Both the position numbers and the translations under genes were made by a program. Of a DNA stretch of 41,311 bases, positions 787 to 34,751 are shown piece after piece (position 1 is the stretch's first letter; every line of letters begins with the position of its first letter). The notes under the pieces are model-generated. The model was given only the letters and a program-made list of their open reading frames with translations. It made no database searches and was not told the origin of the DNA. Location: the IMG/VR virus record IMGVR_UViG_3300021962_010588, positions 1 through 41,311 of that record. One strand, given 5' to 3'. Source of the DNA: a virus.

Positions 787-815
787 TTGACAGATGACAC
801 CCTCCGTTTTATAAT
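787..815 (+). promoter_or_regulatory. consensus sigma70-type early promoter
   Basis: TTGACA (787-792), a 17-base spacer and TATAAT (810-815): a perfect consensus. An ATG begins six bases after the -10 box, so the predicted transcription start falls on the start codon. Confidence 0.85.
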
Positions 816-821
816 AACTGT

Positions 822-1226
822 ATGACTATGCATCTTGTAGGACCATACCTTAGTATGAACTCAACCAAAAAACGTAAGACCAAAGGTCTCACAGCCAAGG
901 ACAGGCAAGCACAGGAAGATTACAAACAATATCTTAGATCATTGGGGGTTGACCCTGACAAGAAACACAACAAAAGAGACATGGCGATCTTTGACAGTTC
1001 AGTGCATACAAATTATTCTGAACCGAGAAATACTCCATACTACAAGTCTAACCCACAGGATTTACCGACTCCCAACAAGATGTTCGCAAAAAGCAATCGC
1101 AGTTGGAAGGACACACAAGAAAGATTAGAGATCAGCAAACAATACTCGATCATGCCGGCCTACAACAAAGGCCCTTACATGGTGGTGGGCAAGGCCGACA
1201 TCAAAACAGCAGGTAAGAAAGTATGA
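822..1226 (+). CDS. conserved small basic phage protein, unknown function
   Basis: Basic, polar protein of 134 residues, or 123 if started at the second ATG at 855 (MNSTKKRKTKG). No signal peptide or membrane segment is evident. The C-terminal part (SKQYSIMPAYNKGPYMVV) resembles short hypothetical proteins I recall from marine T4-like phages. Two starts are possible. The ATG at 822 sits exactly six bases after TATAAT, like the leaderless genes elsewhere in the window. The ATG at 855 has a weak AGGA nine bases or more upstream. The stop overlaps the next ATG (ATGA at 1223), so the two genes are translationally coupled. Function unknown. Confidence 0.7.
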   Translation: MTMHLVGPYLSMNSTKKRKTKGLTAKDRQAQEDYKQYLRSLGVDPDKKHNKRDMAIFDSSVHTNYSEPRNTPYYKSNPQDLPTPNKMFAKSNRSWKDTQERLEISKQYSIMPAYNKGPYMVVGKADIKTAGKKV

Positions 1227-1501
1227 TCAGGTCACTCGTTTTATCCGTAGTATTCTTCTTCATCATTCTTTACATCCCCTATTGCGCCAAAGCGGGAGTC
1301 ATCATCGAACCAAGATACACCGAAAATCAATTGGACTGGGTTGACCCAAACAAAGAGCCATCCAACTTCGACGGATACTATATCTCCGAGCACGGATTGA
1401 CCTGTCAGAATCAAGTATTCCAAGTTTACCAGAATGGCATGTATCTGCCTGCAAGAAAATGCCAATTGCCGGACGGTGCTTGGTTTGCCGAACTGCTTTA
1501 G
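1223..1501 (+). CDS. small exported protein, unknown function
   Basis: Protein of 92 residues with a clear N-terminal signal peptide: a hydrophobic stretch at about residues 5-20 ending near AKA (22-24). The mature part is about 68 residues with two cysteines (in TCQNQ and RKCQL), which could form a disulfide in the periplasm. Its start overlaps the stop of the previous gene (ATGA), so it is translated with it from the promoter at 787. It opens a run of exported products that includes the lipoprotein and DUF4384-like protein downstream. I do not recognise a family. Confidence 0.7.
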   Translation: MIRSLVLSVVFFFIILYIPYCAKAGVIIEPRYTENQLDWVDPNKEPSNFDGYYISEHGLTCQNQVFQVYQNGMYLPARKCQLPDGAWFAELL

Positions 1502-1528
1502 TCTTATTTTCCAACAATTTTACCCTGG

Positions 1529-1556
1529 TTGACACTGCATCGTTCTGTAGTATAAT
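1529..1556 (+). promoter_or_regulatory. sigma70-type early promoter
   Basis: TTGACA (1529-1534), a 16-base spacer and TATAAT (1551-1556), followed by six bases and the ATG at 1563. No ribosome binding site is present, so a leaderless mRNA is predicted. Confidence 0.85.
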
Positions 1557-1562
1557 AAAAGC

Positions 1563-2111
1563 ATGAAACATATAACAGCAATACTACTCATGTTGATGCT
1601 TGGTGCTTGTTCATCAGGACCTTTTAACAAGAACATCAACAAAGGAGTAGATGTTGATACGGTAAAACTGCGTGGTGGCAGTGAAGTTCCTGAATGGTTC
1701 TTTGATTATCCAATGGATGACGAATCATGGGTTTATGGTGTTGCCACAGGTCAAAGTCAGGACATGCAGTTCTCGATCGACAAAGGCATCCATGACGCCA
1801 AGGTCATGATTGCGGATAAACTACAGAACTATATCAATGGAGACTTCAAAAGATACATAGAAGATTCCGGATCTGTAGTGAACGGTAACACTACCCAATT
1901 GACTCAAAAATTGTCACAGGCGATTATAGATGAGTTGGACATGGGTGGTTACATCGTTGTAAACAAAGTGGTCGTCAATGAAGGACCTCACTATAGATCT
2001 TTCATATTGATGAAATTCAATCGTTCAGATTGGTATCCACCTGCGAGAGTAGTGGAGATCAACAAGGATGCAATTGATGAAACATTTGCTCAATCGGAAA
2101 TCATTGAGTAA
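1563..2111 (+). CDS. LPP20-like outer-membrane lipoprotein
   Basis: Protein of 182 residues with a lipoprotein signal peptide and lipobox (LGAC, Cys16). The mature protein has a segment starting PEWFFDYP, then GVATGQSQDMQFSIDKG and repeated helical 'DAKVMIADKL' features. This is the pattern of the LPP20/FlgT-N lipoprotein fold, in which a conserved PxW and GxA(T/S) precede a helix that begins 'A...A...A'. It is predicted to be exported and lipid-anchored in the host outer membrane. It has its own consensus early promoter and a leaderless start. The stop overlaps the next gene by about 35 bases. In bacteria LPP20-type proteins often neighbour envelope or flagellar assembly genes. A phage copy could alter the host surface, for example against superinfection; that role is inference. 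Confidence 0.6.
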   Translation: MKHITAILLMLMLGACSSGPFNKNINKGVDVDTVKLRGGSEVPEWFFDYPMDDESWVYGVATGQSQDMQFSIDKGIHDAKVMIADKLQNYINGDFKRYIEDSGSVVNGNTTQLTQKLSQAIIDELDMGGYIVVNKVVVNEGPHYRSFILMKFNRSDWYPPARVVEINKDAIDETFAQSEIIE

Positions 2112-2829: not shown

Positions 2830-2845
2830 ACCCAAAGGAGATTTT

Positions 2846-3298: not shown

Positions 3299-3407
3299 AA
3301 AGATATTATCAATTATCACATGGCCCTATCGGAAAATCAAATCCGAATTAGCCTATCGTAAAAAAATCAAAGAACTCAAGAAAAGAGATCCTTTTATCTA
3401 CGAATAA
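3291..3407 (+). CDS. small conserved basic protein (38 aa)
   Basis: A 38-residue frame overlaps the QueD stop by eight bases and ends in TAATG, which starts the carbamoyltransferase. The peptide is MIRKILSIITWPYRKIK plus a basic tail ending KKRDPFIYE. It has a short amphipathic hydrophobic start and a KELKKRDPF tail that I recall from small conserved proteins of marine T4-like phages. Its tight packing between two genes supports real translation. Function unknown. Confidence 0.6.
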   Translation: MIRKILSIITWPYRKIKSELAYRKKIKELKKRDPFIYE

Positions 3408-4903
3408 TGATTAGGTGGGGTATATCAGCACTGGCCCATGATGCGGCCTTGGCAGTATTTGACGATAAAAAATTGGTTTTTGCCAGCCATGCAGAAAGAT
3501 ATTCTGGCATAAAAAATGACAAATGGCTCAATCAATTGATCATCGATGATGCTCTAAAGTTTGGCCACCCATTCGAAATACATTTTTACGAGAATACATG
3601 GATCAAAAAAACAAGGCAGGCTTGGGCGGGCCAATGGGATTTGGTCTTCAACAAACCATCCATTCAAGCACACCTCGAAGACTTCGGCATCAAAAAAGAC
3701 AGATTCACCAAATTCAAGATGCACTCGCATCATAGGAGCCATGCGGCGGCAGGTTACTTTACAAGTGTTTACAATGATGCAACTATTGTGGTGATCGACT
3801 CAATAGGTGAATGGGAATGCCTCACTGTATGGGAAGGCAAGGGAGAAAAGTTAAAAAAAGTTTATTCGCAAAATTATCCACACTCGGTGGGCCTATGGTA
3901 TTCTGCCATGACACAGAGGGTGCATTTCAAACCCAACGAAGAAGAATACATCTTGATGGGCATGAGTGCTTTGGGAGATCCCAACAAATACTTCGGCGAG
4001 ATGAAAAGAAACTTCTTTGATTACGACAACCAAGGATTCTCAACAAAATTTAACATCAACTTGCACAGAGGCTGCCAGGGTTGGTTGCCAGAAGCGAACA
4101 CCATCCAAGACCTTTGTGACTTGGCCGCTACCACCCAAGCATTGTACGAAGAAAATTTCCAAAGGATCATCAAGGAAGCCAGATACACCCTTGGATCCAA
4201 AAATTTGGTGTTGGTGGGAGGTTGTGCTCTAAACTGCGTGGCCAATCCCATCGCAAAAAAATATTACGAAAATGTCTGGATAGTGCCCAACCCGGGAGAT
4301 GCTGGATCCTCGGTAGGTTGTGTGCTGGATTCCATAGGTAGGATCGAATGGCCAGGGCCATACCTCGGTTACGACATCGAGGGTGATTATCCTGTTTATG
4401 ATCTCATACAGCACTTGGACAAGTACAAGATCGTTGGCGTGGCCAATGGCCGTGCAGAGTTTGGTCCCAGAGCATTGGGGCACAGATCACTGTTGGCGGA
4501 TCCAAGAGGACCCAACATCAAGGACATGGTCAATCAAATCAAACACAGGCAAGAGTTCAGACCCTTCGCTCCGGCCATATTGGAGGAATATGTGTCAGAT
4601 TACTTCGACACATCTACAATAGGCACACAGAGCCCTTATATGCAGTATACAGCGGTGTGTAAACGCCCAGAAGAGTTCCCTGCCATAGTGCATGTGGACA
4701 ACACATCAAGGATACAAACTGTGGGCAAAAATGATGGATCACCAGGGTTCAGATCACTGCTGGAACAATGGTACAATAAAACAGGTTGCCCCATGTTGTT
4801 GAACACGTCACTGAACATCAAGGGCAAACCCATGGTCAACAACGAACAAGACGCCAAAGACTGGACAAACAAATATGGTGTCACCGTGTTGACAAAATCT
4901 TAA
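3407..4903 (+). CDS. NodU/CmcH/TobZ-family O-carbamoyltransferase
   Basis: A 498-residue protein spanning both family domains. The N-terminal Kae1-like half has GISALAHDAALAVF (5-18), the metal-binding HHRSHAAAGY (108-117), 'VVIDSIGEW' and the nucleotide-binding GGCALNCVAN. The C-terminal YrdC-like half has RAEFGPRALGHRSLLADPR. The family transfers a carbamoyl group from carbamoyl phosphate, via carbamoyl-AMP, to a hydroxyl. Some phage members are reported to carbamoylate 5-hydroxymethylcytosine in DNA (from memory), and others act on sugars or natural products. The substrate here cannot be read from the sequence. It starts in a TAATG overlap. No hydroxymethylase gene is in the window. Confidence 0.85.
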   Translation: MIRWGISALAHDAALAVFDDKKLVFASHAERYSGIKNDKWLNQLIIDDALKFGHPFEIHFYENTWIKKTRQAWAGQWDLVFNKPSIQAHLEDFGIKKDRFTKFKMHSHHRSHAAAGYFTSVYNDATIVVIDSIGEWECLTVWEGKGEKLKKVYSQNYPHSVGLWYSAMTQRVHFKPNEEEYILMGMSALGDPNKYFGEMKRNFFDYDNQGFSTKFNINLHRGCQGWLPEANTIQDLCDLAATTQALYEENFQRIIKEARYTLGSKNLVLVGGCALNCVANPIAKKYYENVWIVPNPGDAGSSVGCVLDSIGRIEWPGPYLGYDIEGDYPVYDLIQHLDKYKIVGVANGRAEFGPRALGHRSLLADPRGPNIKDMVNQIKHRQEFRPFAPAILEEYVSDYFDTSTIGTQSPYMQYTAVCKRPEEFPAIVHVDNTSRIQTVGKNDGSPGFRSLLEQWYNKTGCPMLLNTSLNIKGKPMVNNEQDAKDWTNKYGVTVLTKS

Positions 4904-4916
4904 AATACAGTACAAT
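4889..4916 (+). promoter_or_regulatory. sigma70-type early promoter for uvdE
   Basis: TTGACA (4889-4894) lies within the end of the carbamoyltransferase gene, followed by a 16-base spacer and TACAAT (4911-4916). Six bases later is the ATG at 4923, so a leaderless transcript is predicted. Confidence 0.8.
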
Positions 4917-4922
4917 ACAATT

Positions 4923-5954
4923 ATGCGTCTTGGCTTCTGTTGTAAATATCTTCATTCAGATCGTAGTTTAAAACCCAAATTGTTGAAAGAAGCAGAGTCT
5001 CCTTTAAACTGTAAAGCAACGACTGTGAGATGGTTGAACGAACATCGCGATGAAGCAGAAGAAAAACTTTGGATGCTCATGCAACACAACATTTCATCTA
5101 TTCACGAACTAATAAAATACACAGGCGCACTGCCTGAACCACTGAGGATGTGTCGTTTGAGTTCACCTATTCTTCCGGTTGCAACCGAAGCCACGTGGCG
5201 TTACTTCTGGTCAAAACCAGACGTGATAAACTATTTGGAGAAACACTTTGCGGAAGTTGGCGAAACAGCAAGGCAACTCGGTGTTAGGGTTTCATTCCAT
5301 CCCGGACAGTTCACAGTGCTGGCATCGGAGTCGGATGATGTCATAGAACGATCCATAGATGAATTCGAATATCATGTCAACATGGCCCGTTGGATGGGAT
5401 ACGGTAAGACCTTCCAAGACTTCAAGATCAATGTACACATAGCAGGCGCACGTGGCCCACAGGGCATCATAGATGTGTTGCCACGACTTTCACCAGAAGC
5501 AAGGAATTGCATCACCATAGAGAACGAAGAAATGAAATGGGGATTGTCTGACATACTCGAACTTGAAAAACACGTGGCATTGGTTTTCGACATCCATCAT
5601 CATTGGGTGAACACAGGCGAATGGATAACCCACACAGATGATAGGATCAAGAGAGTCATAGACTCATGGCGTGGTGTGCGTCCTGTGATGCACTACTCAC
5701 AACCGAGAGAAATACTTAAAGACAAAGTAGATGCAAACAAATTGTTAGACAGAGATTGGTTGTTTGCGAATGGTGAAAACAAAGCCACCATACGAGCACA
5801 CTCCGATTTTTATTGGCATCATAAAACCAATGAGTGGGTACGACCATTCGGCGAACTGTTTGACATCCAATGCGAATCCAAGGCAAAAAACCTTGCATCA
5901 ACACTGCTGGCGACAGAATACCAATTGGTGTCTGTGGGATCGCCTGTGTGGTGA
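4923..5954 (+). CDS. uvdE: UV-damage endonuclease UvdE (UVSE)
   Basis: A 343-residue TIM-barrel nuclease matching the UvdE family in length and motifs. It has LGFCCKY at the start, MCRLSSP (near 78), VSFHPGQF (near 121), INVHIAGARG, ITIENEE, the metal-site DIHHHWVN (near 219), PVMHYSQPR and a terminal AHSDFYWH. UvdE uses divalent metals to nick DNA 5' of UV photoproducts and other lesions, starting alternative excision repair in the cytoplasm. All major metal-ligand blocks seem present, so it should be active. The start is fixed by the promoter six bases upstream; there is no ribosome binding site. UV repair is a common acquisition of sunlit-ocean phages. Confidence 0.93.
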   Translation: MRLGFCCKYLHSDRSLKPKLLKEAESPLNCKATTVRWLNEHRDEAEEKLWMLMQHNISSIHELIKYTGALPEPLRMCRLSSPILPVATEATWRYFWSKPDVINYLEKHFAEVGETARQLGVRVSFHPGQFTVLASESDDVIERSIDEFEYHVNMARWMGYGKTFQDFKINVHIAGARGPQGIIDVLPRLSPEARNCITIENEEMKWGLSDILELEKHVALVFDIHHHWVNTGEWITHTDDRIKRVIDSWRGVRPVMHYSQPREILKDKVDANKLLDRDWLFANGENKATIRAHSDFYWHHKTNEWVRPFGELFDIQCESKAKNLASTLLATEYQLVSVGSPVW

Positions 5955-5983
5955 TTGACACAAATGGCAAAAATAAGTATAAT
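5955..5983 (+). promoter_or_regulatory. consensus sigma70-type early promoter for the SOD/Fe-S operon
   Basis: TTGACA (5955-5960), 17 bases, TATAAT (5978-5983). Unlike the others, this transcript has a short leader with GAGGAG (5995-6000) before the ATG at 6010. It starts directly after the uvdE stop. Confidence 0.85.
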
Positions 5984-6009
5984 AACAAAATAAAGAGGAG
6001 ACCACAACA

Positions 6010-6186
6010 ATGATATGGTTAGTAAAATGGTTATTCGGTGGACACAAGGAAGCCACAGCATCAACGGCTGCGACTGCCCAATCTACTACTGTAGAAGCAC
6101 CAACCACCAAAAAGAAAACGACTAAGAAAACAACAACAAAGAAAACGACTAAGAAAAAAGGTCGAGGACGACCTAAGAAGAAGTAG
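6010..6186 (+). CDS. small AT-hook-like basic protein (58 aa)
   Basis: A 58-residue frame preceded by GAGGAG. The N-terminal 12 residues (MIWLVKWLFGGH) are hydrophobic and amphipathic. The rest is threonine/alanine- then lysine-rich (repeated TTKKKTTKK), ending in GRGRPKKK, a textbook AT-hook core (RGRP) that binds the minor groove of AT-rich DNA. The mix suggests DNA binding, perhaps membrane-associated. The next ATG follows two bases after the stop region, so it leads the SOD/Nfu/SufT operon. Function is inferred only from composition and motif. Confidence 0.7.
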   Translation: MIWLVKWLFGGHKEATASTAATAQSTTVEAPTTKKKTTKKTTTKKTTKKKGRGRPKKK

Positions 6187-7643: not shown

Positions 7644-7644
7644 T

Positions 7645-7650
7645 TAAATA
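7645..7650 (+). promoter_or_regulatory. late promoter TAAATA
   Basis: TAAATA just after the previous stop, five bases before the ATG of the A-type carrier gene. The spacing fits a leaderless late transcript. Confidence 0.55.
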
Positions 7651-7655
7651 TTAGT

Positions 7656-7976
7656 ATGATAGAAGTTACAGAATCAGCACAAGAAAAGATGAAAGAAGTG
7701 TTGGATGCCAACGGCAAACCTTACATTCGTTTCGGAGTCAAAGGTGGTGGTTGTGCTGGATTCAACTATCAAATCGATGTAGAAGACAGCAAAAAGGATG
7801 GTGATCAAGAATTGGCGTTTGGCGACGTCAAAGTGCTGGTTGCAGATGTGTGCGAAATGTTCGTGTTGGGCACACGCATAGACTACAAAAAGGAAATATT
7901 TGGGTCCTATTTCACCTACGATAATCCCAATGCGGCTTCGGCCTGTGGATGCGGAACTTCCTTTTCTGTAAAATAA
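7656..7976 (+). CDS. erpA: A-type Fe-S carrier (ErpA/SufA/IscA family)
   Basis: A 106-residue protein, full family length. The three cluster-binding cysteines are present: C33 in GGGCAGFNY and C97/C99 in ACGCGTSF. A-type carriers hold [2Fe-2S] or [4Fe-4S] clusters and pass them to apo-enzymes, often in partnership with Nfu. It lies directly behind Nfu and the SufT-like gene. A late-type TAAATA box separates it from that operon, so it may be made later, or by both read-through and its own promoter. No ribosome binding site is evident. The radical SAM enzymes of this phage are plausible local clients (inference). Confidence 0.92.
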   Translation: MIEVTESAQEKMKEVLDANGKPYIRFGVKGGGCAGFNYQIDVEDSKKDGDQELAFGDVKVLVADVCEMFVLGTRIDYKKEIFGSYFTYDNPNAASACGCGTSFSVK

Positions 7977-7979
7977 ATA
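7974..7979 (+). promoter_or_regulatory. late promoter AATAAATA
   Basis: TAAATA overlapping the preceding stop codon, six bases before the ATG at 7986 of a virion-type gene; leaderless spacing. Confidence 0.7.
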
Positions 7980-7985
7980 CTCATA

Positions 7986-8387
7986 ATGAGCAAACAAAGA
8001 ATCAACGTAGGCACAGGAATCAACACAGGAACGGGCGACACACTCCGCTCGGCCATGGAGAAGTGCAACAACAACTTCGACGAACTGTATGATCTGATGG
8101 GGCTGGACTCCACAGGAAAATCCATAGACATATCAGGCAACACCATATCATCCACTTTCACCAACACAGACATCAACATATCACCCAACGGAACTGGTGA
8201 TGTTGTGATTGGTTCAGACCTTGTGGTAAACACAATCAAGTCAGATGATTCTGCACAAGTCACTATTGAAGATGGATTGACTGTAAATGGTGCAGTGATA
8301 ATGCTTTCGAATCTACCTACTTCAAATCCTAATAATGCTGGTCAGCTGTGGAACGATTCAGGCACACTCAAAGTGTCTGCAGGTTAA
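7986..8387 (+). CDS. tail-fibre/virion-associated protein, short form
   Basis: A 133-residue protein. Its first 35 residues (INVGTGINTGTGDTLR, then a NNNFDELY block) form the N-terminal motif shared with the gene at 8722 and widely seen in tail-fibre or baseplate-attached proteins of marine myoviruses. The middle has the beta-rich 'TDINISPNGTGDVVIGSDL' pattern, and the end resembles a short knob-attachment stretch (SNLPTSNPNNAGQLWNDSG). It has a late promoter with leaderless spacing and is followed by a convergent minus-strand gene. Exact position in the virion is unknown. Confidence 0.7.
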   Translation: MSKQRINVGTGINTGTGDTLRSAMEKCNNNFDELYDLMGLDSTGKSIDISGNTISSTFTNTDINISPNGTGDVVIGSDLVVNTIKSDDSAQVTIEDGLTVNGAVIMLSNLPTSNPNNAGQLWNDSGTLKVSAG

Positions 8388-10044: not shown

Positions 10045-10066
10045 AGTGGGGTTGAAAAACCCCACT
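10045..10066 (+). terminator. hairpin overlapping the next promoter
   Basis: A perfect nine-base stem (AGTGGGGTT/AACCCCACT) with a GAAA tetraloop, 13 bases after the virion gene stop. No T-run follows. The -35 box of the next promoter (TTGAAA) lies in the stem and loop. Confidence 0.6.
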
Positions 10067-10080
10067 GACTCTGTTATAAT
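10052..10080 (+). promoter_or_regulatory. sigma70-type early promoter for radical SAM gene
   Basis: TTGAAA (10052-10057), 17 bases, TATAAT (10075-10080), then six bases to the ATG at 10087; predicted leaderless. Confidence 0.82.
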
Positions 10081-10086
10081 ATCTTG

Positions 10087-11154
10087 ATGCTGGACATTTC
10101 TGTCGATAAACTGCAAAACATTCATTTTGAAATCACCAACAAGTGTAATTCGAGGTGTCCTGGATGTGCGAGGACGCACAAAGGGGAAACACATCCTTAT
10201 CTGGCGGACAAGCTGATGGAGTGGGATCTTCCCACAGTGCAAAAAATATTCACTCCTGACATAATCCGAGATAAACACATCACCCTCGGCGGCACCGTGG
10301 ATGAACCATTCATGAATAGGCACATAGCAGACATCTGCGAGTACCTCATAGACAACCATGCCACCATAGAAATCTTCACCAATGGTGGAGCCAACACCGT
10401 GCAAACATTCGAGAGGCTGGGCAAACTAAGTGCCCGCACACAATCATTGCAGGTCAAATTCTCAGTGGATGGGTGGGAGGATACTAACCATCTTTATCGC
10501 GTGAATGTGGACTGGGACAAGATAGTAGAGAACATGACCGCATACATGCACAACGGCGGCATAGGCGAGTGGCAGTACCTGGTGTTCGCTCACAATGAGA
10601 AGAGCATACCACAGGCAAAGGAACTGGCGGACAGTTTGAAGATTCCACTCATGCTGAGACAGAACGTGAGAAACATCGCACCATGGACTTCTTACATCAA
10701 AAAGAAAGTAGATGGCAAAATTGTCACAGAGAAATTTATAGTCAATCCTACCACAAGCGAAAAACACGAGCATCCCGAGACCAAGACTGTCAGCAAATGG
10801 ACGCAACCAGAAAACATCACTGAACAGGACAAAGCAGATTCCATATTTTGTCTCATGTATCACAAGAAAGAAGTGTTCGTGGATTGGAGTGGCAAGGTTT
10901 GGCCTTGCTGTTGGTTTGCAACAGACTACCATTTCGACAACGAACCAACACTCAAGCAAATAGATGAAGAGTACGGGTCGACATGGAACAGCCTAATGCA
11001 CAACTCGTTGGATGAGATTCTCAAAACACCATACTACAAAGAACTATTATATAAGTCCTGGATCAAAGGCGCCAAGTTCCACAATCCGGAGTGCTTTAAA
11101 AAGTGTGGCGACTTTGCCAAACGCCAAAACTATCGTTATAGCACAGTAGAATAA
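10087..11154 (+). CDS. radical SAM enzyme with SPASM-like C-terminus
   Basis: A 355-residue protein. The radical SAM CxxxCxxC motif is CNSRCPGC (near residues 20-27), preceded by the usual first strand (IHFEITNK). A GGTVDEPF segment takes the GGEP position, and FSVDG follows. The C-terminal part has VDWSGKVWPCCW and later CFKKCGD, cysteines that probably hold an auxiliary Fe-S cluster as in SPASM/Twitch enzymes. It would cleave S-adenosylmethionine to start radical chemistry on an unknown substrate, perhaps a peptide or sugar. ATG at 10087 is preferred over the TTG at 10084 because it sits six bases from the -10 box. Similar enzymes occur in marine T4-like phages. Confidence 0.85.
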   Translation: MLDISVDKLQNIHFEITNKCNSRCPGCARTHKGETHPYLADKLMEWDLPTVQKIFTPDIIRDKHITLGGTVDEPFMNRHIADICEYLIDNHATIEIFTNGGANTVQTFERLGKLSARTQSLQVKFSVDGWEDTNHLYRVNVDWDKIVENMTAYMHNGGIGEWQYLVFAHNEKSIPQAKELADSLKIPLMLRQNVRNIAPWTSYIKKKVDGKIVTEKFIVNPTTSEKHEHPETKTVSKWTQPENITEQDKADSIFCLMYHKKEVFVDWSGKVWPCCWFATDYHFDNEPTLKQIDEEYGSTWNSLMHNSLDEILKTPYYKELLYKSWIKGAKFHNPECFKKCGDFAKRQNYRYSTVE

Positions 11155-11791: not shown

Positions 11792-11797
11792 TAAATA
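11792..11797 (+). promoter_or_regulatory. late promoter CATAAATA
   Basis: TAAATA directly after the terminator, six bases before the ATG at 11804; leaderless spacing. Confidence 0.7.
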
Positions 11798-11803
11798 GTA
11801 CAA

Positions 11804-12751
11804 ATGGCAAAACCTCAATGGAAAACTCGGTCTGGATTGTTAGCGACAGTGGAAGAAAAATCTTCATTCTCCAAGCAGTTGTTGGCTGATGACCCTGCAG
11901 GACAAAGCCTTACTTTCACTAAATCAGCGGGAACATTACCATCAGGAATAACCCTGTCAAGCAAAGGACTTCTGTCAGGAGTGCCGCTGGAAGTGGACAG
12001 GAAAAAAGAGTACGATTTCGTTGTGCGAGTCACAGATGGCACATACTCGGTTGACCGCACTTTCACCATAGTGATTCTTGGGTCAGATGGTCCAGTTTGG
12101 ACAACTGCCAGCGGAAACATACTCACAGTCAACAACGGAGATTACGTTAACTATTCACTGCTGGCGACCGATCAAGATGACAGCATTCTGGAATACAGGA
12201 TCGTTTCCGGATCATTGCCATCCAATCTTACACTCAACAAGAAGACGGGCAAGATAATAGGAGTGGTTGCATACACTCCAGATTCTACCACTGTGTACAA
12301 CTTCACCGTGAGAGTAACGGACGGAGTAAATTATGTGGACAGAGATTTTTCAATTACATACGAACTCACCTCAGTTTCTGATCTTTACTGGTTACAAGCA
12401 GAGGATAGTATCATAGGCAGGATCAAGCACCAAAATTACAATGTGGTCAAAGTGAATGTGTATGATCCAGGAGACATACCTTCGCTGTCAGGACAAACCA
12501 CACTGAGATATAGCCTTTCCAGTGGATCACTGCCTCCTGGCATGTCGGTGAGTACTTTGAGCGGGGAAATTTACGGAGTAGTGCCTTTGATATACGACAC
12601 CCTAACAACTTATACTTTCACAATCCAAGTGATCAAATCATCACCACTGTTCGACGACAAGACCTTCACAAGGCAGTTCAAGATAGAAGTGGAAGGCCAA
12701 GGCGCCAATGAAATCACATGGTTCGCTGACCTCAAGGAGTTATCACTGTAA
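11804..12751 (+). CDS. virion protein with He_PIG/Ig-like repeats (first part)
   Basis: A 315-residue protein made of about three Ig-like repeats of the He_PIG type. Each has a xxxLPSG(I/L)xL or LPPGMSV step followed by GxxxGVPL and a 'YxFxVRVTDG' strand: SAGTLPSGITL near 45, SGSLPSNLTL near 135, SGSLPPGMSV near 240. Such repeats build adhesive tail or baseplate proteins in marine myoviruses. The last residues (NEITWFADLKELSL) look like the start of a fourth repeat that continues in the next frame, which begins in a TAATG overlap. The two genes may be one ancestral protein. Late promoter, no ribosome binding site. Confidence 0.75.
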   Translation: MAKPQWKTRSGLLATVEEKSSFSKQLLADDPAGQSLTFTKSAGTLPSGITLSSKGLLSGVPLEVDRKKEYDFVVRVTDGTYSVDRTFTIVILGSDGPVWTTASGNILTVNNGDYVNYSLLATDQDDSILEYRIVSGSLPSNLTLNKKTGKIIGVVAYTPDSTTVYNFTVRVTDGVNYVDRDFSITYELTSVSDLYWLQAEDSIIGRIKHQNYNVVKVNVYDPGDIPSLSGQTTLRYSLSSGSLPPGMSVSTLSGEIYGVVPLIYDTLTTYTFTIQVIKSSPLFDDKTFTRQFKIEVEGQGANEITWFADLKELSL

Positions 12752-15131: not shown

Positions 15132-15160
15132 TTGTTCTTTTTCCAAAAAATTTGTATAAT
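15132..15160 (+). promoter_or_regulatory. sigma70-type early promoter
   Basis: TTGTTC (15132-15137), 17 bases, TATAAT (15155-15160). Six bases after the -10 box is an ATG (15167) that opens a nine-codon leader frame. Confidence 0.7.
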
Positions 15161-15166
15161 ATATGA

Positions 15167-15196
15167 ATGAAATCTAATAAATTCCAATGTACTTAG
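15167..15196 (+). CDS. putative leaderless leader peptide (9 aa)
   Basis: ATG six bases after TATAAT opens MKSNKFQCT and a TAG. Its last ten bases overlap the start of the next gene (ATG at 15187, different frame), which lacks any ribosome binding site. Ribosomes that load on the leaderless mRNA could finish this peptide and restart on the overlapping ATG. Support is the exact promoter spacing and the overlap only; there is no direct evidence of translation. Confidence 0.4.
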   Translation: MKSNKFQCT

Positions 15197-18593: not shown

Positions 18594-18599
18594 TATAAT
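18571..18599 (+). promoter_or_regulatory. sigma70-type early promoter for clamp loader
   Basis: TTGTGT (18571-18576), 17 bases, TATAAT (18594-18599), six bases to ATG 18606; leaderless. Confidence 0.75.
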
Positions 18600-18605
18600 A
18601 ACAAC

Positions 18606-20615: not shown

Positions 20616-20621
20616 TAAATA
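20616..20621 (+). promoter_or_regulatory. late promoter AATAAATA
   Basis: TAAATA seven bases before the ATG at 20629. It lies inside the N-terminus of a longer frame starting at 20611, so the position decides for the shorter start. Confidence 0.5.
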
Positions 20622-20628
20622 CTTGACT

Positions 20629-21105
20629 ATGATTGACACACTTGATGTAATCCGTAATATCAAAAAAATCTATGCTTCAGACAACGTGATTAACTCGCTG
20701 GTTGGCATGGAGAAAGTTATGGATGACGTCAATCTATATGCTTATCAAAACTGGAATCTGGGAGAAATAGTAGACGGTCCGCACCAAACAAAATATACCA
20801 CAGAAGCAACATTCATGTGGGAAGCAGACAAAATGCCGGATCCAGAGGGTGCTTTGAGACTTACCAATTTGGGTGCCAAAGTTGAGTTCAAGAAAGATAT
20901 CAAACTCACACCACGCAAAATTAAGTCCTATGATGATTATCGTCCTGGCACAAGGAAAGCAAAATTAGATGAAATTCCTGTATGGCTTGTTAAGGTATCT
21001 ATCCCAAAAACTGTGATAGAAGACTTTAACAACGAAACTGAAAAAACTAAAACAGTTTCAGGAATGCAAGTTGATCAATCTCCTCAAGACGCTGTAGAAT
21101 TATAA
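20629..21105 (+). CDS. probable virion protein, unknown function
   Basis: About 158 residues from the ATG at 20629 (MIDTLDVIRNIKKIYASDN), preferred for its seven-base distance from a late promoter. ATG 20611 would add six residues. The sequence is a soluble alpha/beta protein with 'LNLGAKVEFK'-type strands and conserved YQNWNLGEIVDGP and RKIKSYDDYRPG stretches that I recall from marine T4-like phages. An earlier promoter candidate also exists upstream. Its stop overlaps the next gene (TAATG). A structural or neck role is only suspected. Confidence 0.55.
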   Translation: MIDTLDVIRNIKKIYASDNVINSLVGMEKVMDDVNLYAYQNWNLGEIVDGPHQTKYTTEATFMWEADKMPDPEGALRLTNLGAKVEFKKDIKLTPRKIKSYDDYRPGTRKAKLDEIPVWLVKVSIPKTVIEDFNNETEKTKTVSGMQVDQSPQDAVEL

Positions 21106-25371: not shown

Positions 25372-25533
25372 ATGATACAATGGATCAAAGACAGAATAAA
25401 AGAATCATCAACCAAGCACGGCATAGGACTGCTGATCGGTTGCTTGTTAATCATTGCATTCGGTGGGTTGGCTAAAATTTTAGCATACTGTGGAATTGCA
25501 TACTCGATTTGGAGAATCTGTAAAAAAGGTTAA
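25372..25533 (+). CDS. small membrane protein (53 aa)
   Basis: A 53-residue frame one base after the previous stop: a basic start (MIQWIKDRIKESSTKH), then a hydrophobic region from about 17 to 48 that could form one long or two short membrane segments, and a KKG end. Cationic ends around a hydrophobic core resemble small holins. The late promoter of the next gene overlaps its stop. Expression is supported by position only. Confidence 0.45.
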   Translation: MIQWIKDRIKESSTKHGIGLLIGCLLIIAFGGLAKILAYCGIAYSIWRICKKG

Positions 25534-25536
25534 ATA
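25531..25536 (+). promoter_or_regulatory. late promoter TAAATA
   Basis: TAAATA beginning with the stop codon of the small membrane protein gene, six bases before ATG 25543; leaderless spacing. Confidence 0.6.
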
Positions 25537-25542
25537 TCAAAA

Positions 25543-25932
25543 ATGGCACAAGATATCAAAGATGACGAACTGAACGTTTTCGACGACATTGAAAAGGACA
25601 CACTCAAGGAAGACAAGATAGTGGCGCCCGTCGACCAAAAGACAACTTCTAAGAAAGTGTCTGTTGAACTGGAAGTGGATACATCTGTGAAGGATCTTGG
25701 CCCAAATCCTTATGCTAAATTAATTCATCTTGCTCGTGCTGTAGACTCATGGAGAATATTTCCGAGAATTTTTATTACCACTTACATTTATTTGTTATAC
25801 AGAGTAGTTGTTTGGTACATGAACCTTGCAGATCCAACCATGGAACAGTCAGGATTGGTATCAATTGTAGTTGGTGCCGGTGCGGCTTGGTTTGGTTTAT
25901 ACACAGGCTCTTCTAAAAAGCACGACAAGTAG
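25543..25932 (+). CDS. membrane protein, holin candidate
   Basis: A 129-residue protein: an acidic, unstructured N-terminus of about 65 residues, then two hydrophobic segments (about 77-95, IFITTYIYLLYRVVVWYM, and 105-122, LVSIVVGAGAAWFGLYTG) with a short turn and a basic tail KKHDK. Two membrane spans with a charged tail are compatible with a class II holin. I recall similar proteins in marine T4-like phages, with the PTMEQSGLVSIVVGA part conserved. It has a late promoter with leaderless spacing. The holin role is inference. Confidence 0.5.
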   Translation: MAQDIKDDELNVFDDIEKDTLKEDKIVAPVDQKTTSKKVSVELEVDTSVKDLGPNPYAKLIHLARAVDSWRIFPRIFITTYIYLLYRVVVWYMNLADPTMEQSGLVSIVVGAGAAWFGLYTGSSKKHDK

Positions 25933-29485: not shown

Positions 29486-29494
29486 GGAGAAACA

Positions 29495-30047: not shown

Positions 30048-30053
30048 TAAATA
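30048..30053 (+). promoter_or_regulatory. late promoter AATAAATA
   Basis: TAAATA just after the upstream stop, five bases before ATG 30059; leaderless spacing. Confidence 0.65.
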
Positions 30054-30058
30054 TACAC

Positions 30059-30406
30059 ATGCCCGTAACAGCAATCACCATTCAAAGCCAAGTTGATGCA
30101 AGCGATTCGTCAGCATCAACAGTATCAGACAAAGTTAAAGCAGATGGATACTATGGCAATGCCGATGGACTGCACACTGTGGCATACATTTGTTCTTCTG
30201 ATTTCGTAGGAACCATCAAACTGCAAGCCTCGTTGGCCTCTGATCCTGCGTCCACAGATTGGTTCGACATAGACGGAACCTCGGTGGGGGATGGATCCAG
30301 CGTCGTGGCAACTACCTATAAGAATTTCACAGGCAATTTTGTATGGATCAGATCAGTGGTTGATGTTACCACAGGATCCGTAACCAAAATTTTACTTAAT
30401 TATTAA
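30059..30406 (+). CDS. probable virion protein
   Basis: A 115-residue beta-rich protein (SQVDASDSSASTVSDK, HTVAYICSSDFVGTIKLQASL, NFVWIRSVVDVTTGSVTKI) with the small-residue composition of the other virion proteins here. It looks like a single jelly-roll-type domain, as in small decoration or fibre-tip proteins of marine phages. The late promoter with leaderless spacing agrees. No closer family is recognised. Confidence 0.65.
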   Translation: MPVTAITIQSQVDASDSSASTVSDKVKADGYYGNADGLHTVAYICSSDFVGTIKLQASLASDPASTDWFDIDGTSVGDGSSVVATTYKNFTGNFVWIRSVVDVTTGSVTKILLNY

Positions 30407-30426
30407 ATTCCATTATAACTAACTGC

Positions 30427-30771: not shown

Positions 30772-30785
30772 CGGGTTTTACCACA

Positions 30786-30813
30786 TTGACAGATCACTAA
30801 TCTGTATTACAAT
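30786..30813 (+). promoter_or_regulatory. sigma70-type early promoter for subtilase gene
   Basis: TTGACA (30786-30791), 16 bases, TACAAT (30808-30813), six bases to ATG 30820; leaderless. A six-base inverted repeat (ACAGAT/ATCTGT, 30789-30805) lies across the -35 end and spacer and could be an operator. Confidence 0.8.
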
Positions 30814-30819
30814 ATACGT

Positions 30820-33504
30820 ATGACAAGATTAGTGAGTATTCTATTATTATCACTATTTTTAACAAACTGCGGAGGCAGTGGGGGAGGACCTGTTTCTATT
30901 TCTGTTCCAAATCCTACAAATATTTCAATCAGCACCGATGTGGTTTCTAATTCATTTGTCAGTGCTTTGATCGACATCGCCGACGACAAACAGATAGATA
31001 TCAATGAAGCCTATCAAGCATTTCAATGGGTGGAACAGCATCCTAACTTTGATCCGAGTTCGCTGGCAAATGTCAACATAATAATCGACAGCCAAAGTAT
31101 GACCTTGGAACAAGGCTATTATGCATTGAAAGGATTCAAAAAGAGGTATTATGATGGCAAGGAAAGTTTATGGTCTATGGCAGTTGAACAAGGCCAGTTC
31201 GACGATCAGTCAGCAGAATACATAGCAGTGCAACAGATAGTTGAGTATGACGATTCACTATCAAGCCAAGAAAGATTAGATTTATACAAAGATCAAGGAC
31301 AAGGCCAAAAAGTTGTTGTCAGCACAAGCATTTCTCAGACAATTACAAACACAGATGTGGTTGTGGGCGAAAGTGTGATCACCACAGCGATCACCACAAG
31401 AAATGTTGTGGAATCTACACTGGACGGCACAGTGACCAAGACATATCAAACCACGACCACCACAACCAAAGTACCAACACACACAACAACCACCAGAGCC
31501 ACAAGGACAACTTTTAATTGGTCGGATGGCACAACAACATCAACTGATTCAGACCCTGTTTCAGAAACAGTCACCACTTGGAGCGAAAGCGCCGATGTGG
31601 AAGAAGTATTGACTGCAACATCAACTGTGCCCGTAGGTGAAATATTTTTGACTGACGAGTACAACAGCACAGCATTGGATCAGATAGGAGCCTCATATGC
31701 CTATGCCAGAGGCTGGACTGGAGACGGTGTGATAGTTGGCATGATAGATTCAGGCATAGACACTGACCATGAAGATCTTGATTCTGATAGATTTTCAACC
31801 ATCAATTACAGATTTGCTGGCACAGAAGATGACAATGGTCACGGCACGCATGTGGCTGGAATCATCGCCGGTGCAAAGAATGACATAGGCACACACGGTG
31901 TGGCCTATGATGCTGATCTTATTTCAATAAAATTGTGTTCGAGCAGTGGCAGATGTTCATTTTCCTATTTCGATGATGCCATGGTGGTGTTGAGCAATCA
32001 AGGCGCCGCTGTGGCCAACCTATCCGCTAACACATCGACAACAATCTTGACACAAATTGGTAGCACTGATGCTTACTACTTGCCCGGACAAACTTCCGTG
32101 GATGGTGTTGCAGATGCCACACTGTCGAATTATCAGACAGCGATCGACAATGGCATGATCATTGTGAACTCCGCAGGCAACTATGGGATGGATTACCCCA
32201 TGATGCCTTCGCACTACGCCACCAGAGTGGATTCGAATGGTGACTTATATCTTAATGGACAATGGTTGATCGTGGGTGCTGTCGACTCCAACAATCAAAT
32301 TGCTTCATGGTCCAACAAGGCGGGACACATCTGTTCCAATGTGGTGTACACGGACGGCGTTGCCACAGGCTGTGATGACACTTTCAACACCAAAGATTTC
32401 TTTGTGGTGGCACCAGGTGTGAACATTCTTTCCAGTGCCAACGGTGGTGGCACAACCACCAAGAGTGGAACTTCTATGGCGGCTCCTTATGTGACAGGAT
32501 CTATCGCTGTGTTGAAACAGGCATGGCCACAACTGAGACCTGAACAACTGGTAGGATTAATCACATCAACCGCCCGAGACTTGGGAGCACCAGGAGTTGA
32601 TGCTGTGTATGGACACGGATTGGTGGATTTGAATGAAGCAACCAAACCACAGGGTGACATAGTTGCTGTGCAACCTTCCGGAGCCATCAGTGCCATATCA
32701 GGTGGCATCGTGGGCGACTCATCCATGAGTGGGTTGGACAACATATCCGCAGTTTCATCCATAGTTGTGATGGATTCATATAACAGAGATTACTATGCCG
32801 ATGACGACAATTTCACTTCCTTTCAATTGACCGAACAAGCACTGGGCAATCAATATGTCAACTATGAACCAGTGACAAAACTGCAAGGGGATGGCATGCT
32901 GTTTGCAATGAGTGAGAACGGCGATGATTGGCTGTATGGAAAATCAGTAGAACACTCAGACAAGTTGGACGTCACATACAGTTTTGGACGCATGAAACAG
33001 GACGGCAGTCTGTTGGGATCATCCTTCCAAGGATCATTCGCAATCAAGTCCAGCACCACAAATTATGTTGGGGCAGACATGAACTACTCAGTGACGGAAA
33101 AATGGACATGGAATAGTGGTTTTATTAGGGGATATTCGGACGTTAAATCTGCCAATGATTCATACATCACTGGATCTTCCAACATACAGTCACAATCATG
33201 GTATTTGGGGATGACCTATCAGAACATTAACAATCAATTCATTATCAAAATGGGTGAACAATTGAATGTCGTCGACGGTGATATCAATTATACCCTTCCA
33301 ACAGCATATAATTGGACCGACAACTCGACCACATTCACAAGTGGTTCTGCTTCGGCAAAATCAAGCGAAGTTCCTAAGGTAGTGGAGTTGGCGTATTCCA
33401 AACAACTATCAGAATCATGGAATTTTTCTGCAAGTTCGAGGTACACTTTTGTTGAAGATAATGACTTGATGACGGCGAATTTGGGTGTGAAATATGTTTG
33501 GTAA
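30820..33504 (+). CDS. subtilisin-like lipoprotein protease with autotransporter-like C-terminus
   Basis: An 894-residue exported protein. A lipoprotein signal with lipobox LTNC (Cys17) is followed by a GGSGGG linker, a helical region (40-165) and a Thr-rich stretch (about 165-270). A subtilase domain then carries the full triad: Asp310 (MIDSGID), His341 (GHGTHVAG), Ser552 (SGTSMAAPY), plus oxyanion Asn454 (NSAGNYG). The last 170-200 residues alternate aromatic/hydrophobic and polar residues (TWNSGFIRGYSD, SWNFSASSRYTF) and end in YVW, as in autotransporter beta-barrels. It would act at the host outer membrane or outside. Early, leaderless promoter. No phage homologue is known to me; bacterial transfer is likely. 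Confidence 0.82.
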   Translation: MTRLVSILLLSLFLTNCGGSGGGPVSISVPNPTNISISTDVVSNSFVSALIDIADDKQIDINEAYQAFQWVEQHPNFDPSSLANVNIIIDSQSMTLEQGYYALKGFKKRYYDGKESLWSMAVEQGQFDDQSAEYIAVQQIVEYDDSLSSQERLDLYKDQGQGQKVVVSTSISQTITNTDVVVGESVITTAITTRNVVESTLDGTVTKTYQTTTTTTKVPTHTTTTRATRTTFNWSDGTTTSTDSDPVSETVTTWSESADVEEVLTATSTVPVGEIFLTDEYNSTALDQIGASYAYARGWTGDGVIVGMIDSGIDTDHEDLDSDRFSTINYRFAGTEDDNGHGTHVAGIIAGAKNDIGTHGVAYDADLISIKLCSSSGRCSFSYFDDAMVVLSNQGAAVANLSANTSTTILTQIGSTDAYYLPGQTSVDGVADATLSNYQTAIDNGMIIVNSAGNYGMDYPMMPSHYATRVDSNGDLYLNGQWLIVGAVDSNNQIASWSNKAGHICSNVVYTDGVATGCDDTFNTKDFFVVAPGVNILSSANGGGTTTKSGTSMAAPYVTGSIAVLKQAWPQLRPEQLVGLITSTARDLGAPGVDAVYGHGLVDLNEATKPQGDIVAVQPSGAISAISGGIVGDSSMSGLDNISAVSSIVVMDSYNRDYYADDDNFTSFQLTEQALGNQYVNYEPVTKLQGDGMLFAMSENGDDWLYGKSVEHSDKLDVTYSFGRMKQDGSLLGSSFQGSFAIKSSTTNYVGADMNYSVTEKWTWNSGFIRGYSDVKSANDSYITGSSNIQSQSWYLGMTYQNINNQFIIKMGEQLNVVDGDINYTLPTAYNWTDNSTTFTSGSASAKSSEVPKVVELAYSKQLSESWNFSASSRYTFVEDNDLMTANLGVKYVW

Positions 33505-33508
33505 GACA

Positions 33509-33536
33509 TTGACAAAACTTAAATTTGCAATATACT
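33509..33536 (+). promoter_or_regulatory. sigma70-type early promoter for polysaccharide-lyase-like gene
   Basis: TTGACA (33509-33514), 16 bases, TATACT (33531-33536), six bases to ATG 33543; leaderless. Confidence 0.82.
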
Positions 33537-33542
33537 AAAAGG

Positions 33543-34751
33543 ATGATAAGATATATTTTATATTTTGTATTGATATGCATACCACTGCATGCAGGTGAAT
33601 ACCAAATTTTTCCTAAACAAGGAACCCACAATCCCAGGTGTCTTGAAAACGCACAATTCCAAGTTTCGGAATTAGATCATTTGTTGTCACCAAACAAAAA
33701 CTTCAAATGGGTGACAATGAGACAAAAAAATGATTTTGATTATGCAAAAGTCAATAGAAACACAATCAGGAACCTTTCTTTTTATTGGAGCCAACCAACA
33801 AAACAAAATGCAGATCAATTTATCAGATATCTTTTAGAATTATATAATGATAAAAAATTCGCCAATGGTGTAGGTGGTGGTGACGGTATAGACAACGCAG
33901 GTAGATTGCAACCAGCCATATTTGCTTTGTATTTTTCTTATCATGCACTTCAATCAAACGGTCATTTGGACGACACACAGCAAGAAATATTTTTAGAAAT
34001 GTTGGGATCTCGTTCAAAAAACTTGTTTGGATTCATCAACAGGGAAGCAAATCACACATATACCATGTCAAGATGCAGTAAAGGTGGAGACATTTTTGGA
34101 TGTCAGAACCATACCTATGATGTTCAATTGACCAGGGTGCTGTACGGAGCCACTTTCAATGATCCAAAACACTTTCAACAAGGACAAAAAATATTTCATT
34201 TCGCGATAGACGACTTGCATGATGATGGAGCATTGTGGAGAGAAGCACAAAGAGGAGCATGGAGTTGGCACTACTATTCCAAGGGTCTTAATCTTTTAAC
34301 AATCGTGGCCGAAATACACAGATCGAATGGTAAAGATCTTTATGATTACAGCAATAGCAATGGCCAAACTTTCCATGACGCAGTCAAGTTCTTGCTGGAT
34401 GCAATGCACGATCATGAGATCATGTGGAAGCATGCGAGGAAAAACAAAGGATTAGATGGCAAAGGTCAACGCAAGGACTACAAAGATTTAGAATATTATC
34501 ACATGCTAAAATTTAACGGCATGGATGGACACAATGGGTGGGCATATGTATATGTCAACAATTTTCCGGATCACCCCAACTCACAAAGGATTAAGGAAAC
34601 AATACAACTGCAGGATGAGATAGAATGGTCTGCAGAAGGTTTGGATTTGGGTTGTTTTTATCCTGTACCGGTCTCTGAATATGGAGTAGACGGGCAGGAC
34701 ACAATCAACGACACAGAGATGGTCACCAAATTTACATGGGAGAAAAATTAA
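33543..34751 (+). CDS. exported alginate-lyase-like (PL5-type fold) protein
   Basis: A 402-residue protein with a signal peptide (IRYILYFVLICIPLHAGEY) and an all-helical body. The region around residues 175-290 matches the Alginate_lyase family pattern: QNHTYDVQLTRVLYGATFND, where PL5 has NNHRYW; DDGALWREAQRGAWSWHYY, where PL5 has RG..ALHYH; and 'LTIVAEIHRSNGKDLYDY' followed by a FLLDAM block. PL5 enzymes cleave mannuronate polymers by beta-elimination in the periplasm. Here the tryptophan of NNHRYW is Asp, so activity and substrate are uncertain. TTG 33525 is rejected because the ATG at 33543 fits the promoter spacing. Stop overlaps the next ATG. Confidence 0.6.
   Translation: MIRYILYFVLICIPLHAGEYQIFPKQGTHNPRCLENAQFQVSELDHLLSPNKNFKWVTMRQKNDFDYAKVNRNTIRNLSFYWSQPTKQNADQFIRYLLELYNDKKFANGVGGGDGIDNAGRLQPAIFALYFSYHALQSNGHLDDTQQEIFLEMLGSRSKNLFGFINREANHTYTMSRCSKGGDIFGCQNHTYDVQLTRVLYGATFNDPKHFQQGQKIFHFAIDDLHDDGALWREAQRGAWSWHYYSKGLNLLTIVAEIHRSNGKDLYDYSNSNGQTFHDAVKFLLDAMHDHEIMWKHARKNKGLDGKGQRKDYKDLEYYHMLKFNGMDGHNGWAYVYVNNFPDHPNSQRIKETIQLQDEIEWSAEGLDLGCFYPVPVSEYGVDGQDTINDTEMVTKFTWEKN

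What the first reader, a model, noticed from the sequence alone, without database searches (positions are those of the whole stretch)
787..33545. Genome-wide leaderless early transcripts: -10 box, exactly six bases, then ATG
At eight early promoters the hexamer is followed by exactly six bases and an ATG: 810-815/822, 1551-1556/1563, 4911-4916/4923, 10075-10080/10087, 15155-15160/15167, 18594-18599/18606, 30808-30813/30820 and 33531-33536/33543. With normal sigma70 geometry the transcript starts on the A of the ATG. None has a usable ribosome binding site, while internal operon genes do have AGGAG sites. A shared architecture across functionally unrelated genes suggests selection for leaderless translation, perhaps by 70S ribosomes or to favour phage mRNAs. 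Single leaderless phage transcripts are known (lambda cI from PRM), but a systematic early set is unusual.
Basis: partly seen in the sequence, partly recalled or inferred. Interest (0 to 1): 0.85.

Follow-up and report, generated by a model that had tools for sequence, protein, structure and literature searches.

The report
T4-like phage with leaderless gene promoters
This environmental T4-like phage and its close relatives place many promoters, of the host type and of the phage late type, so near the start codon that the messenger RNA should begin at the first codon with no ribosome-binding leader, a layout rarely described in phages and testable in the laboratory.

Summary
Seven open real genes; the one at 15155 opens a 9-codon ORF. 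The pattern beats chance: 5 TATAAT-N6-ATG on the + strand (shuffle mean 0.21), 0 on the - strand. Sixteen related IMG/VR contigs plus the window show both classes: TATAAT gap 6, 29 of 607 sites; NTAAATA gaps 5-7, 116 of 290. These starts lack Shine-Dalgarno 4-mers (0 of 78; other starts 99 of 308). For one virion gene, more distant relatives keep the late box 18-27 nt upstream in 28 of 33 cases; T4 has 0 of 32 TATAAATA at gaps 5-7. So both promoter types appear placed for leaderless mRNA in this clade. It is neither confined to early genes nor universal: 13 of 31 perfect sigma70 promoters have the ATG at gaps 5-7. Not shown: mapped 5' ends, timing, host, benefit. Precedent: Thermus phage phiYS40 (review passage). 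New variant of a known kind.

The parts
787..824 (+). sigma70-type promoter TTGACA-17-TATAAT, 6 nt, ATG of gene 822-1226 (unknown function)
   Evidence: orthologues G005 and G016 keep gap 6
1529..1565 (+). sigma70-type promoter TTGACA-16-TATAAT, 6 nt, ATG of gene 1563-2111 (lipoprotein-like by eye)
   Evidence: orthologues G005 and G016 keep gap 6
4889..4925 (+). sigma70-type promoter TTGACA-16-TACAAT, 6 nt, ATG of the UvdE-like gene 4923-5954
   Evidence: six near-clade sites, gap 5 or 6
10052..10089 (+). sigma70-type promoter TTGAAA-17-TATAAT, 6 nt, ATG of the radical SAM/SPASM gene 10087-11154
15155..15196 (+). TATAAT, 6 nt, ATG of a 9-codon ORF that overlaps the start of gene 15187-15756; not a gene start, weak -35
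18594..18608 (+). TATAAT (weak -35), 6 nt, ATG of the gp44-like clamp loader 18606-19538
   Evidence: TANNNT at gap 6 in 15 of 16 near loci
30786..30822 (+). sigma70-type promoter TTGACA-16-TACAAT, 6 nt, ATG of the subtilase gene 30820-33504
   Evidence: orthologue G016 gap 6
33509..33545 (+). sigma70-type promoter TTGACA-16-TATACT, 6 nt, ATG of the alginate-lyase-domain gene 33543-34751
7645..7658 (+). late-type box TAAATA, 5 nt, ATG of gene 7656-7976
   Evidence: 9 near-clade sites all at gap 5
7974..7988 (+). late-type box TAAATA, 6 nt, ATG of gene 7986-8387 (tail-fibre/baseplate connector match)
11792..11806 (+). late-type box TAAATA, 6 nt, ATG of gene 11804-12751
   Evidence: 9 near-clade sites all at gap 6
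20616..20631 (+). late-type box TAAATA, 7 nt, ATG of gene 20629-21105 (virion structural match)
   Evidence: leadered in distant relatives
25531..25545 (+). late-type box TAAATA, 6 nt, ATG of gene 25543-25932
30048..30061 (+). late-type box TAAATA, 5 nt, ATG of gene 30059-30406 (weak virion match)
35729..35744 (+). late-type box TAAATA, 7 nt, ATG of gene 35742-36011
37185..37198 (+). late-type box TAAATA, 5 nt, ATG of gene 37196-37669
5955..6012 (+). counter-example: perfect promoter with a 26-nt gap containing GAGGAG before ATG 6010

Best explanation
The window is a fragment of a T4-like phage, distantly related to the Pseudomonas phage PA5oct group, from a clade whose promoters have come to lie next to start codons. 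Host-type sigma70 promoters carry the -10 box 5-7 nt (mostly 6) before the ATG. Late promoters of the T4 gp55 type (TAAATA) carry the box 5-8 nt before it. With usual start-site geometry RNA polymerase begins on, or within a base or two of, the A of the ATG, so the first gene of such a transcript is read from a leaderless mRNA by a ribosome that recognises a 5'-terminal AUG; other genes use Shine-Dalgarno sites. Shown by sequence: the position peaks, lack of SD, kept spacing under divergence, leadered arrangement of the same genes in relatives. Inferred: the actual 5' ends, the late sigma factor of this clade, the initiation mode, and any advantage.
For: Window: shuffles and opposite strand. 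Clade: gap peaks in 17 sequences that persist in 14 contigs without the window and its same-species contigs (TATAAT gap 6 20 against a mean of 3.5 at other gaps; TATACT 13 against 1.4; NTAAATA gap 5 52 against 2.6). -35 present in 34 of 49 TATAAT at gaps 5-7, 116 of 557 others. Reversed-sequence control: 0 of 202 promoter-like sites at gaps 5-7, real 54 of 326. SD 0 of 78 against 99 of 308. Pyrimidine before the ATG 58 of 78 against 119 of 308, as expected for a start on the A. Orthologues keep the gap while the bases between change. Distant relatives have the late box 18-27 nt upstream in 28 of 33 copies of one virion gene. T4 0 of 32 and P-SSM2 0 of 20 TATAAATA at gaps 5-7.
Against: No 5' end is mapped. 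No gp55 gene was found in the 17 near-clade records, which are fragments. Late gap-6 sites do not show the pyrimidine (8 of 27; 17 of 27 are A), so their start may lie one base upstream. 17 of 31 perfect sigma70 promoters have the first ATG elsewhere. TACAAT alone has no significant gap-6 peak (6 against 3.25, p 0.11). Sites of related phages are not independent, so the p-values are only indicative. One near locus, L017, has an SD-like upstream instead, and the family with the minus-strand PhoH-like gene may start further down.
Confidence: 0.8

Rival explanations
1. The AT-rich boxes just before the ATG are translation-initiation elements (an unstructured, S1-binding leader), and transcription starts further upstream.
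For: AT-rich SD-less starts exist in other bacteria (PMC3160421 passages speak of atypical genes in Cyanobacteria and Bacteroidetes). TAAATA has no -35 partner to prove it a promoter. No 5' ends are mapped.
Against: The sigma70 boxes carry a -35 at the right spacing in 34 of 49 cases. The same late box sits 18-27 nt upstream, partly with an SD between, in relatives. Anagram hexamers averaged 8.3 per 1000 sites at gap 6 against 47.8 for TATAAT, though two AT-rich anagrams (TTAAAT, ATAATT) also reach 29-30.
Confidence: 0.1
2. The promoters are real but transcription starts a few bases upstream or at several sites, giving 1-5 nt leaders that are functionally ordinary SD-less mRNAs.
For: Gaps vary from 5 to 8 in the late class, and the late gap-6 group has A before the ATG in 17 of 27 sites.
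Against: The pyrimidine before the ATG in sigma70, late gap-5 and late gap-7 sites (54 of 62, 50 of 58, 25 of 29) points to a start on the A itself.
Confidence: 0.08
3. The eight sites are a selection effect in an AT-rich genome.
Against: Shuffles, the opposite strand and 14 further contigs.
Confidence: 0.01

Closest known systems
Thermus phage phiYS40 leaderless middle and late transcripts
   Same: A phage that makes most middle/late mRNAs without a leader, with evidence of IF2 up and IF3 down (review PMC3594737, passage).
   Different: Its host phylum has very many leaderless genes (PMC3160421 passage). Here the phage is T4-like, the host unknown, both sigma70-type and T4-late-type boxes are involved, and close relatives keep leaders. 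Nothing is measured here.
Deinococcus-Thermus -10 box next to the ORF
   Same: A -10 box at fixed short spacing before the ORF acts as promoter for leaderless mRNA, shown by experiment in D. radiodurans (PMC12340547, abstract and passages).
   Different: Cellular genes, TANNNT often without a -35; here mostly TTGACA-16/17-TATAAT in a phage.
T4 late promoters (TATAAATA, gp55)
   Same: Same TAAATA core; in relatives it lies upstream of virion genes with a leader.
   Different: T4 has 0 of 32 TATAAATA at gaps 5-7; the near clade has 11 of 24. The late factor of this clade was not found.
Xanthomonas phage XacN1 and Pelagibacter phage HTVC008M
   Same: Both show a minority of leaderless-type sites: XacN1 12 of 175 TATAAT at gaps 6-7 and 15 of 119 NTAAATA at gaps 5-7; HTVC008M 14 of 186 NTAAATA at gaps 5-7.
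   Different: XacN1 keeps a larger leadered peak (36 of 175 TATAAT at gaps 27-30); HTVC008M shows no TATAAT peak.
Lambda cI from PRM
   Same: A leaderless phage mRNA, used as a model (PMC9031893 passage).
   Different: A single transcript, not a layout repeated over many genes of a clade.

Membership tests
Leaderless gene expression | Promoter -10 box placed so that +1 falls on or next to the start codon | tested here: met
   Gap peaks with controls
Leaderless gene expression | No Shine-Dalgarno site before the start | tested here: met
   0 of 78 against 99 of 308
Leaderless gene expression | RNA 5' end mapped at the AUG | not testable with these tools
   Only an indirect sign, the pyrimidine before the ATG, 58 of 78 against 119 of 308
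phiYS40-type leaderless phage programme | Shift of host initiation factors towards leaderless mRNA | not testable with these tools
   Host unknown; precedent known from a review passage
T4-type late promoters | TATAAATA-like box upstream of virion genes | tested here: met
   Three of eight window late-type genes match tail, head or virion families; three match families of unknown function only or best, and three of the eight match none or nothing named; core TAAATA, the first T only in 24 sites of the near set
T4-type late promoters | gp55 late sigma factor encoded by the phage | tested here: inconclusive
   0 of 17 near-clade records, all fragments; present in 6 of 6 named relatives searched
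PA5oct group (Arenbergviridae) | Close core-gene similarity | tested here: inconclusive
   gp44-like clamp loader 56% identical, best of the named phages; no megablast match to any phage record for bases 1-25000; near clade separate from PA5oct in the gp44 tree

The most novel reading that the evidence does not exclude
A T4-like phage lineage has moved the first gene of most of its late transcription units, and about half of its strong host-type ones, to leaderless expression, and changes or exploits the host ribosome during infection so that 5'-AUG mRNAs are favoured over host SD-led mRNAs. The leaderless minority in XacN1, HTVC008M and other marine T4-like phages would be earlier or parallel stages that track hosts already tolerant of leaderless mRNA.
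Probability: 0.25. Interest if true: 0.85.

Novelty: new variant of a known kind. Interest (0 to 1): 0.62.

Why it matters
If true, gene starts and promoters of this phage group are mis-modelled by SD-based tools, and the group offers a natural contrast: the same genes with and without leaders in related phages. That makes the question of what favours leaderless translation testable with orthologous promoters. The layout may also hint at the host: in gammaproteobacteria predicted leaderless genes were found mostly in Xanthomonadales and Legionellales (PMC3160421 passage), and XacN1 infects a Xanthomonas.

Tried and rejected
Host: the NifU-like protein in genome contigs gave 12 weak relatives (29-53% identity) from unrelated groups; the host stays unknown. 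Phage-encoded ribosomal protein bS21 as a cause: 0 of 17 near-clade fragments, present in 5 of 6 named relatives; XacN1 lacks it and has leaderless-type sites, PA5oct has it and shows no TATAAT gap-6 peak (2 of 1008), so no link is seen. Megablast of bases 1-25000 against the phage collection found nothing; the rest was not run. Together they show a sharp peak at gap 5 (50 of 850 NTAAATA), but near-duplicates and gene families were not sorted out.

Dropped rows: the TAAATA-N7-ATG at 22202 lies inside a gene and opens no ORF of 40 codons, so it is not among the eight; the minus-strand TAAATA-N7-ATG at 20551-20536 opens 21 codons, and the PhoH-like gene probably starts further down. In one search seven of 17 sequences were used, window and G002 share DNA, and repeated sigma70 sites were filed as 'other'; one search repeats the count with duplicates removed (33 dropped, 2 too near an end), and its numbers are the ones used for SD. 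The start choice for 'other' genes (longest ORF) is crude and lowers their SD rate. In the gp44 tree (51 of the 80 loci plus three) the XacN1 row has a branch of 6.9 and is not used; the leaderless label needs 4 changes (shuffled mean 11.1), not one. G003 and G014 were fetched without their last 446 and 883 bases. For gp44 relatives 26 of 43 have no TATAAT within 45 nt and DnaJ relatives rarely have an SD (1 of 28), with TATAAT at gaps 3-7 in 4 of 28: leaderless-type dnaJ starts may be older than the clade, and the contrast is gene by gene.

Literature: ten searches listed no report of leaderless late promoters in T4-like phages; only openly licensed PMC papers are held and most listed papers were seen as listings only, so this is weak evidence of absence. 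Passages seen: AR9 (5' UTRs of 26-491 nt, the opposite layout, with a remark that phage transcripts are often leaderless), (a reference title only; methods of an OM43 phage paper). That phiKZ late transcripts are leaderless is my recollection and was not found. The T4 late start about six nt after the box and the polymerase preference for a pyrimidine before a purine start are also recalled.

Full report
What the window is. The 41,311-base window is a linear IMG/VR virus record with a T4-like gene set. Of ten proteins scanned, Pfam matches include UvdE, radical SAM/SPASM, a clamp-loader-like AAA ATPase, a subtilase, an alginate lyase domain, a carbamoyltransferase and a Clp-type ATPase. The best named relatives of the gp44-like clamp loader are Pseudomonas phages of the PA5oct/Paride group, at 56% identity. 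The 80 IMG/VR loci kept of 154 relatives fall into a near set (L003-L018, 87-100% identity) and others (65-75%).

Checking the claim. Seven start genes; the eighth (15155) opens nine codons, and the gene starts 26 nt after the box. On the + strand 5 of 14 TATAAT are followed by ATG after exactly six bases, on the - strand 0 of 13. In 300 dinucleotide shuffles the mean was 0.21 and the maximum 4; with a -35 required, 7 are observed against a mean of 0.08 and a maximum of 2. Not all promoters fit: the perfect promoter at 5955-5983 has a 26-nt gap with GAGGAG.

A second class. TAAATA, the core of the T4 late promoter, occurs 16 times on the + and 3 times on the - strand. Nine lie 5-7 nt before an ATG on the + strand, against a shuffle mean of 0.94 and a maximum of 4; eight of these open ORFs of 89-315 codons. 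Of the eight proteins, one matches tail families, one a virion structural family, one a virion family only as second match, two families of unknown function, and three nothing. So the arrangement is not confined to early genes.

Replication in relatives. The 16 near contigs were restored and with the window give 649,701 bases. Counting distinct sites and ATGs that open at least 40 codons: TATAAT 10/29/10 at gaps 5/6/7 of 607; TATACT 16 at gap 6 of 241; NTAAATA 60/27/29 at gaps 5/6/7 of 290. Without the window and G001 and G002, whose gp44 is identical to the window's, the peaks stay in 14 contigs: TATAAT gap 6, 20 (mean of 36 other gaps 3.5); TATACT gap 6, 13 (1.4); NTAAATA gap 5, 52 (2.6). 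TACAAT alone does not (6 against 3.25, p 0.11). A -35 with at most two mismatches accompanies 34 of 49 TATAAT at gaps 5-7 and 116 of 557 others. As controls, sequences read backwards gave 0 of 202 promoter-like sites at gaps 5-7, the real ones 54 of 326; other arrangements of the letters of TATAAT averaged 8.3 per 1000 at gap 6 against 47.8, with two of them (TTAAAT, ATAATT) near 30.

How general. Of perfect TTGACA-16/18-TATAAT promoters in the 17 sequences, 13 of 31 have the first such ATG at gaps 5-7, 17 elsewhere within 60 nt, 1 none. Counting any ATG and spacing 16-17, it is 15 of 29 distinct promoters. So about half, not all.

Conservation. 198 leaderless-type starts fall into 72 protein families, 77 sites of the sigma70 type (including some with 3 mismatches) and 121 late-type. 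In many families the box stays 5-7 nt from the ATG while the bases between change. For gp44, 15 of 16 near loci have TANNNT at gap 6; L017 has GAGG instead.

No SD, and a start-site sign. In seven sequences, with duplicates removed, SD 4-mers precede 0 of 78 leaderless-type starts (30 sigma70, 48 late) and 99 of 308 others. Lack of SD partly follows from the space the box takes up. The base before the ATG is C or T in 58 of 78 against 119 of 308; by class 54 of 62 sigma70, 50 of 58 late gap-5 and 25 of 29 late gap-7 sites, but only 8 of 27 late gap-6 sites. By family the majority is C or T in 17 of 24, 19 of 23 and 8 of 10, and in 4 of 13 for late gap 6. A start on the A predicts a pyrimidine before it (recalled), so the gap-6 late sites may start one base earlier.

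Same genes, leadered in relatives. For the virion gene at 20629, near-clade boxes lie at gap 7 in 10 of 11 sites. In 33 distinct more distant relatives the nearest TAAATA lies 18-27 nt upstream in 28, at 4-7 in 3, at 14 in 1, and is absent in 1; 14 of 33 have an SD. For gp44, 33 of 43 distant relatives have an SD, four with TATAAT at gaps 16-17, but 26 have no TATAAT nearby. DnaJ is different: 4 of 28 distant relatives also have TATAAT at gaps 3-7, and only 1 has an SD. Overall 60 of 145 NTAAATA in the 16 near loci lie at gaps 5-8, in the other 64 loci 34 of 805; for TATAAT at gaps 5-7 it is 22 of 276 against 22 of 1178. In the gp44 tree the near clade has support 100/99; 10 of its 12 rows are mostly leaderless by late boxes, two are ties (L012, L017), and two rows outside (L019, L042) also score so on few sites.

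Wider survey. TATAAATA at gaps 5-7: T4 0 of 32, P-SSM2 0 of 20, PA5oct 2 of 38, HTVC008M 5 of 21, XacN1 1 of 6, near clade 11 of 24. XacN1 has 12 of 175 TATAAT at gaps 6-7, eight of them with a perfect TTGACA, and a larger leadered peak of 36 at gaps 27-30. Perfect TTGACA-16/17-TATAAT with any ATG at gaps 5-7: 13 of 24 in eight near records (the window and G001 share DNA), 14 of 60 in XacN1 with its terminal repeats counted twice or 8 of 34 distinct, and 8 of 49 in the other 14 named phages. Loci around gp55 in other marine T4-like phages show 50 of 850 NTAAATA at exactly gap 5. A leaderless minority is therefore wider, and in the near clade it becomes the main layout for late boxes.

Mechanism. 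Host polymerase at sigma70 promoters and late polymerase at TAAATA boxes would start on or next to the A of the ATG. The first gene would then be translated from a 5'-terminal AUG; a review says that this happens mostly by direct binding of 70S particles, with IF2 stimulating in vitro and IF3 acting both ways by dose (PMC9031893 passages). The layout, SD loss and conservation are shown; the 5' ends, the late factor, the initiation mode and any benefit are inferred.

Place among known systems. Thermus phage phiYS40 is the closest precedent seen (review passage), and in D. radiodurans a -10 box beside the ORF was shown to be a promoter and not replaceable by a ribosome site (PMC12340547, abstract and passages). 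Different here are the T4-like background, the use of late-type boxes, and relatives that keep leaders. Ten paper searches listed no such report for T4-like phages, within an open-licence library. I score it a new variant of a known kind.

Noticed in passing
15155-15196: The promoter-adjacent ATG at 15167 opens a 9-codon ORF whose stop overlaps the start of the next gene (15187), a layout that could couple a leaderless mini-ORF to the gene.
   Followed up: partly
20551-20536 (minus strand) and 20616 (plus strand): Divergent late-type boxes. On the minus strand the adjacent ATG is in frame with a PhoH-like ATPase (named by eye) in relatives but opens only 21 codons in the window; the gene probably starts further down after a GGAG.
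   Followed up: partly
6188-7976: A run of genes that look, by eye, like superoxide dismutase, NifU, a DUF59/SufT-type and an IscA-type iron-sulphur protein; the last starts at a late-type leaderless site.
   Followed up: no
30820-34751: A subtilase and an alginate-lyase-domain protein, both with signal-peptide-like starts (by eye) and leaderless-type sigma70 promoters.
   Followed up: no
7986-8387 and 8722-10032: Two neighbouring proteins with similar N-termini: the first has a late-type leaderless start, the second an SD (CAGGAG), a possible natural pair for comparing the two modes.
   Followed up: no
10045-10066: A perfect inverted repeat with a GAAA-containing centre overlaps the -35 of the radical SAM gene promoter, perhaps the terminator of the gene before it.
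   Followed up: no
L170-L189 (XacN1) and L153-L160 (HTVC008M): Two cultured phages with a minority of leaderless-type promoters, sigma70-type and late-type in XacN1 and late-type in HTVC008M.
   Followed up: partly
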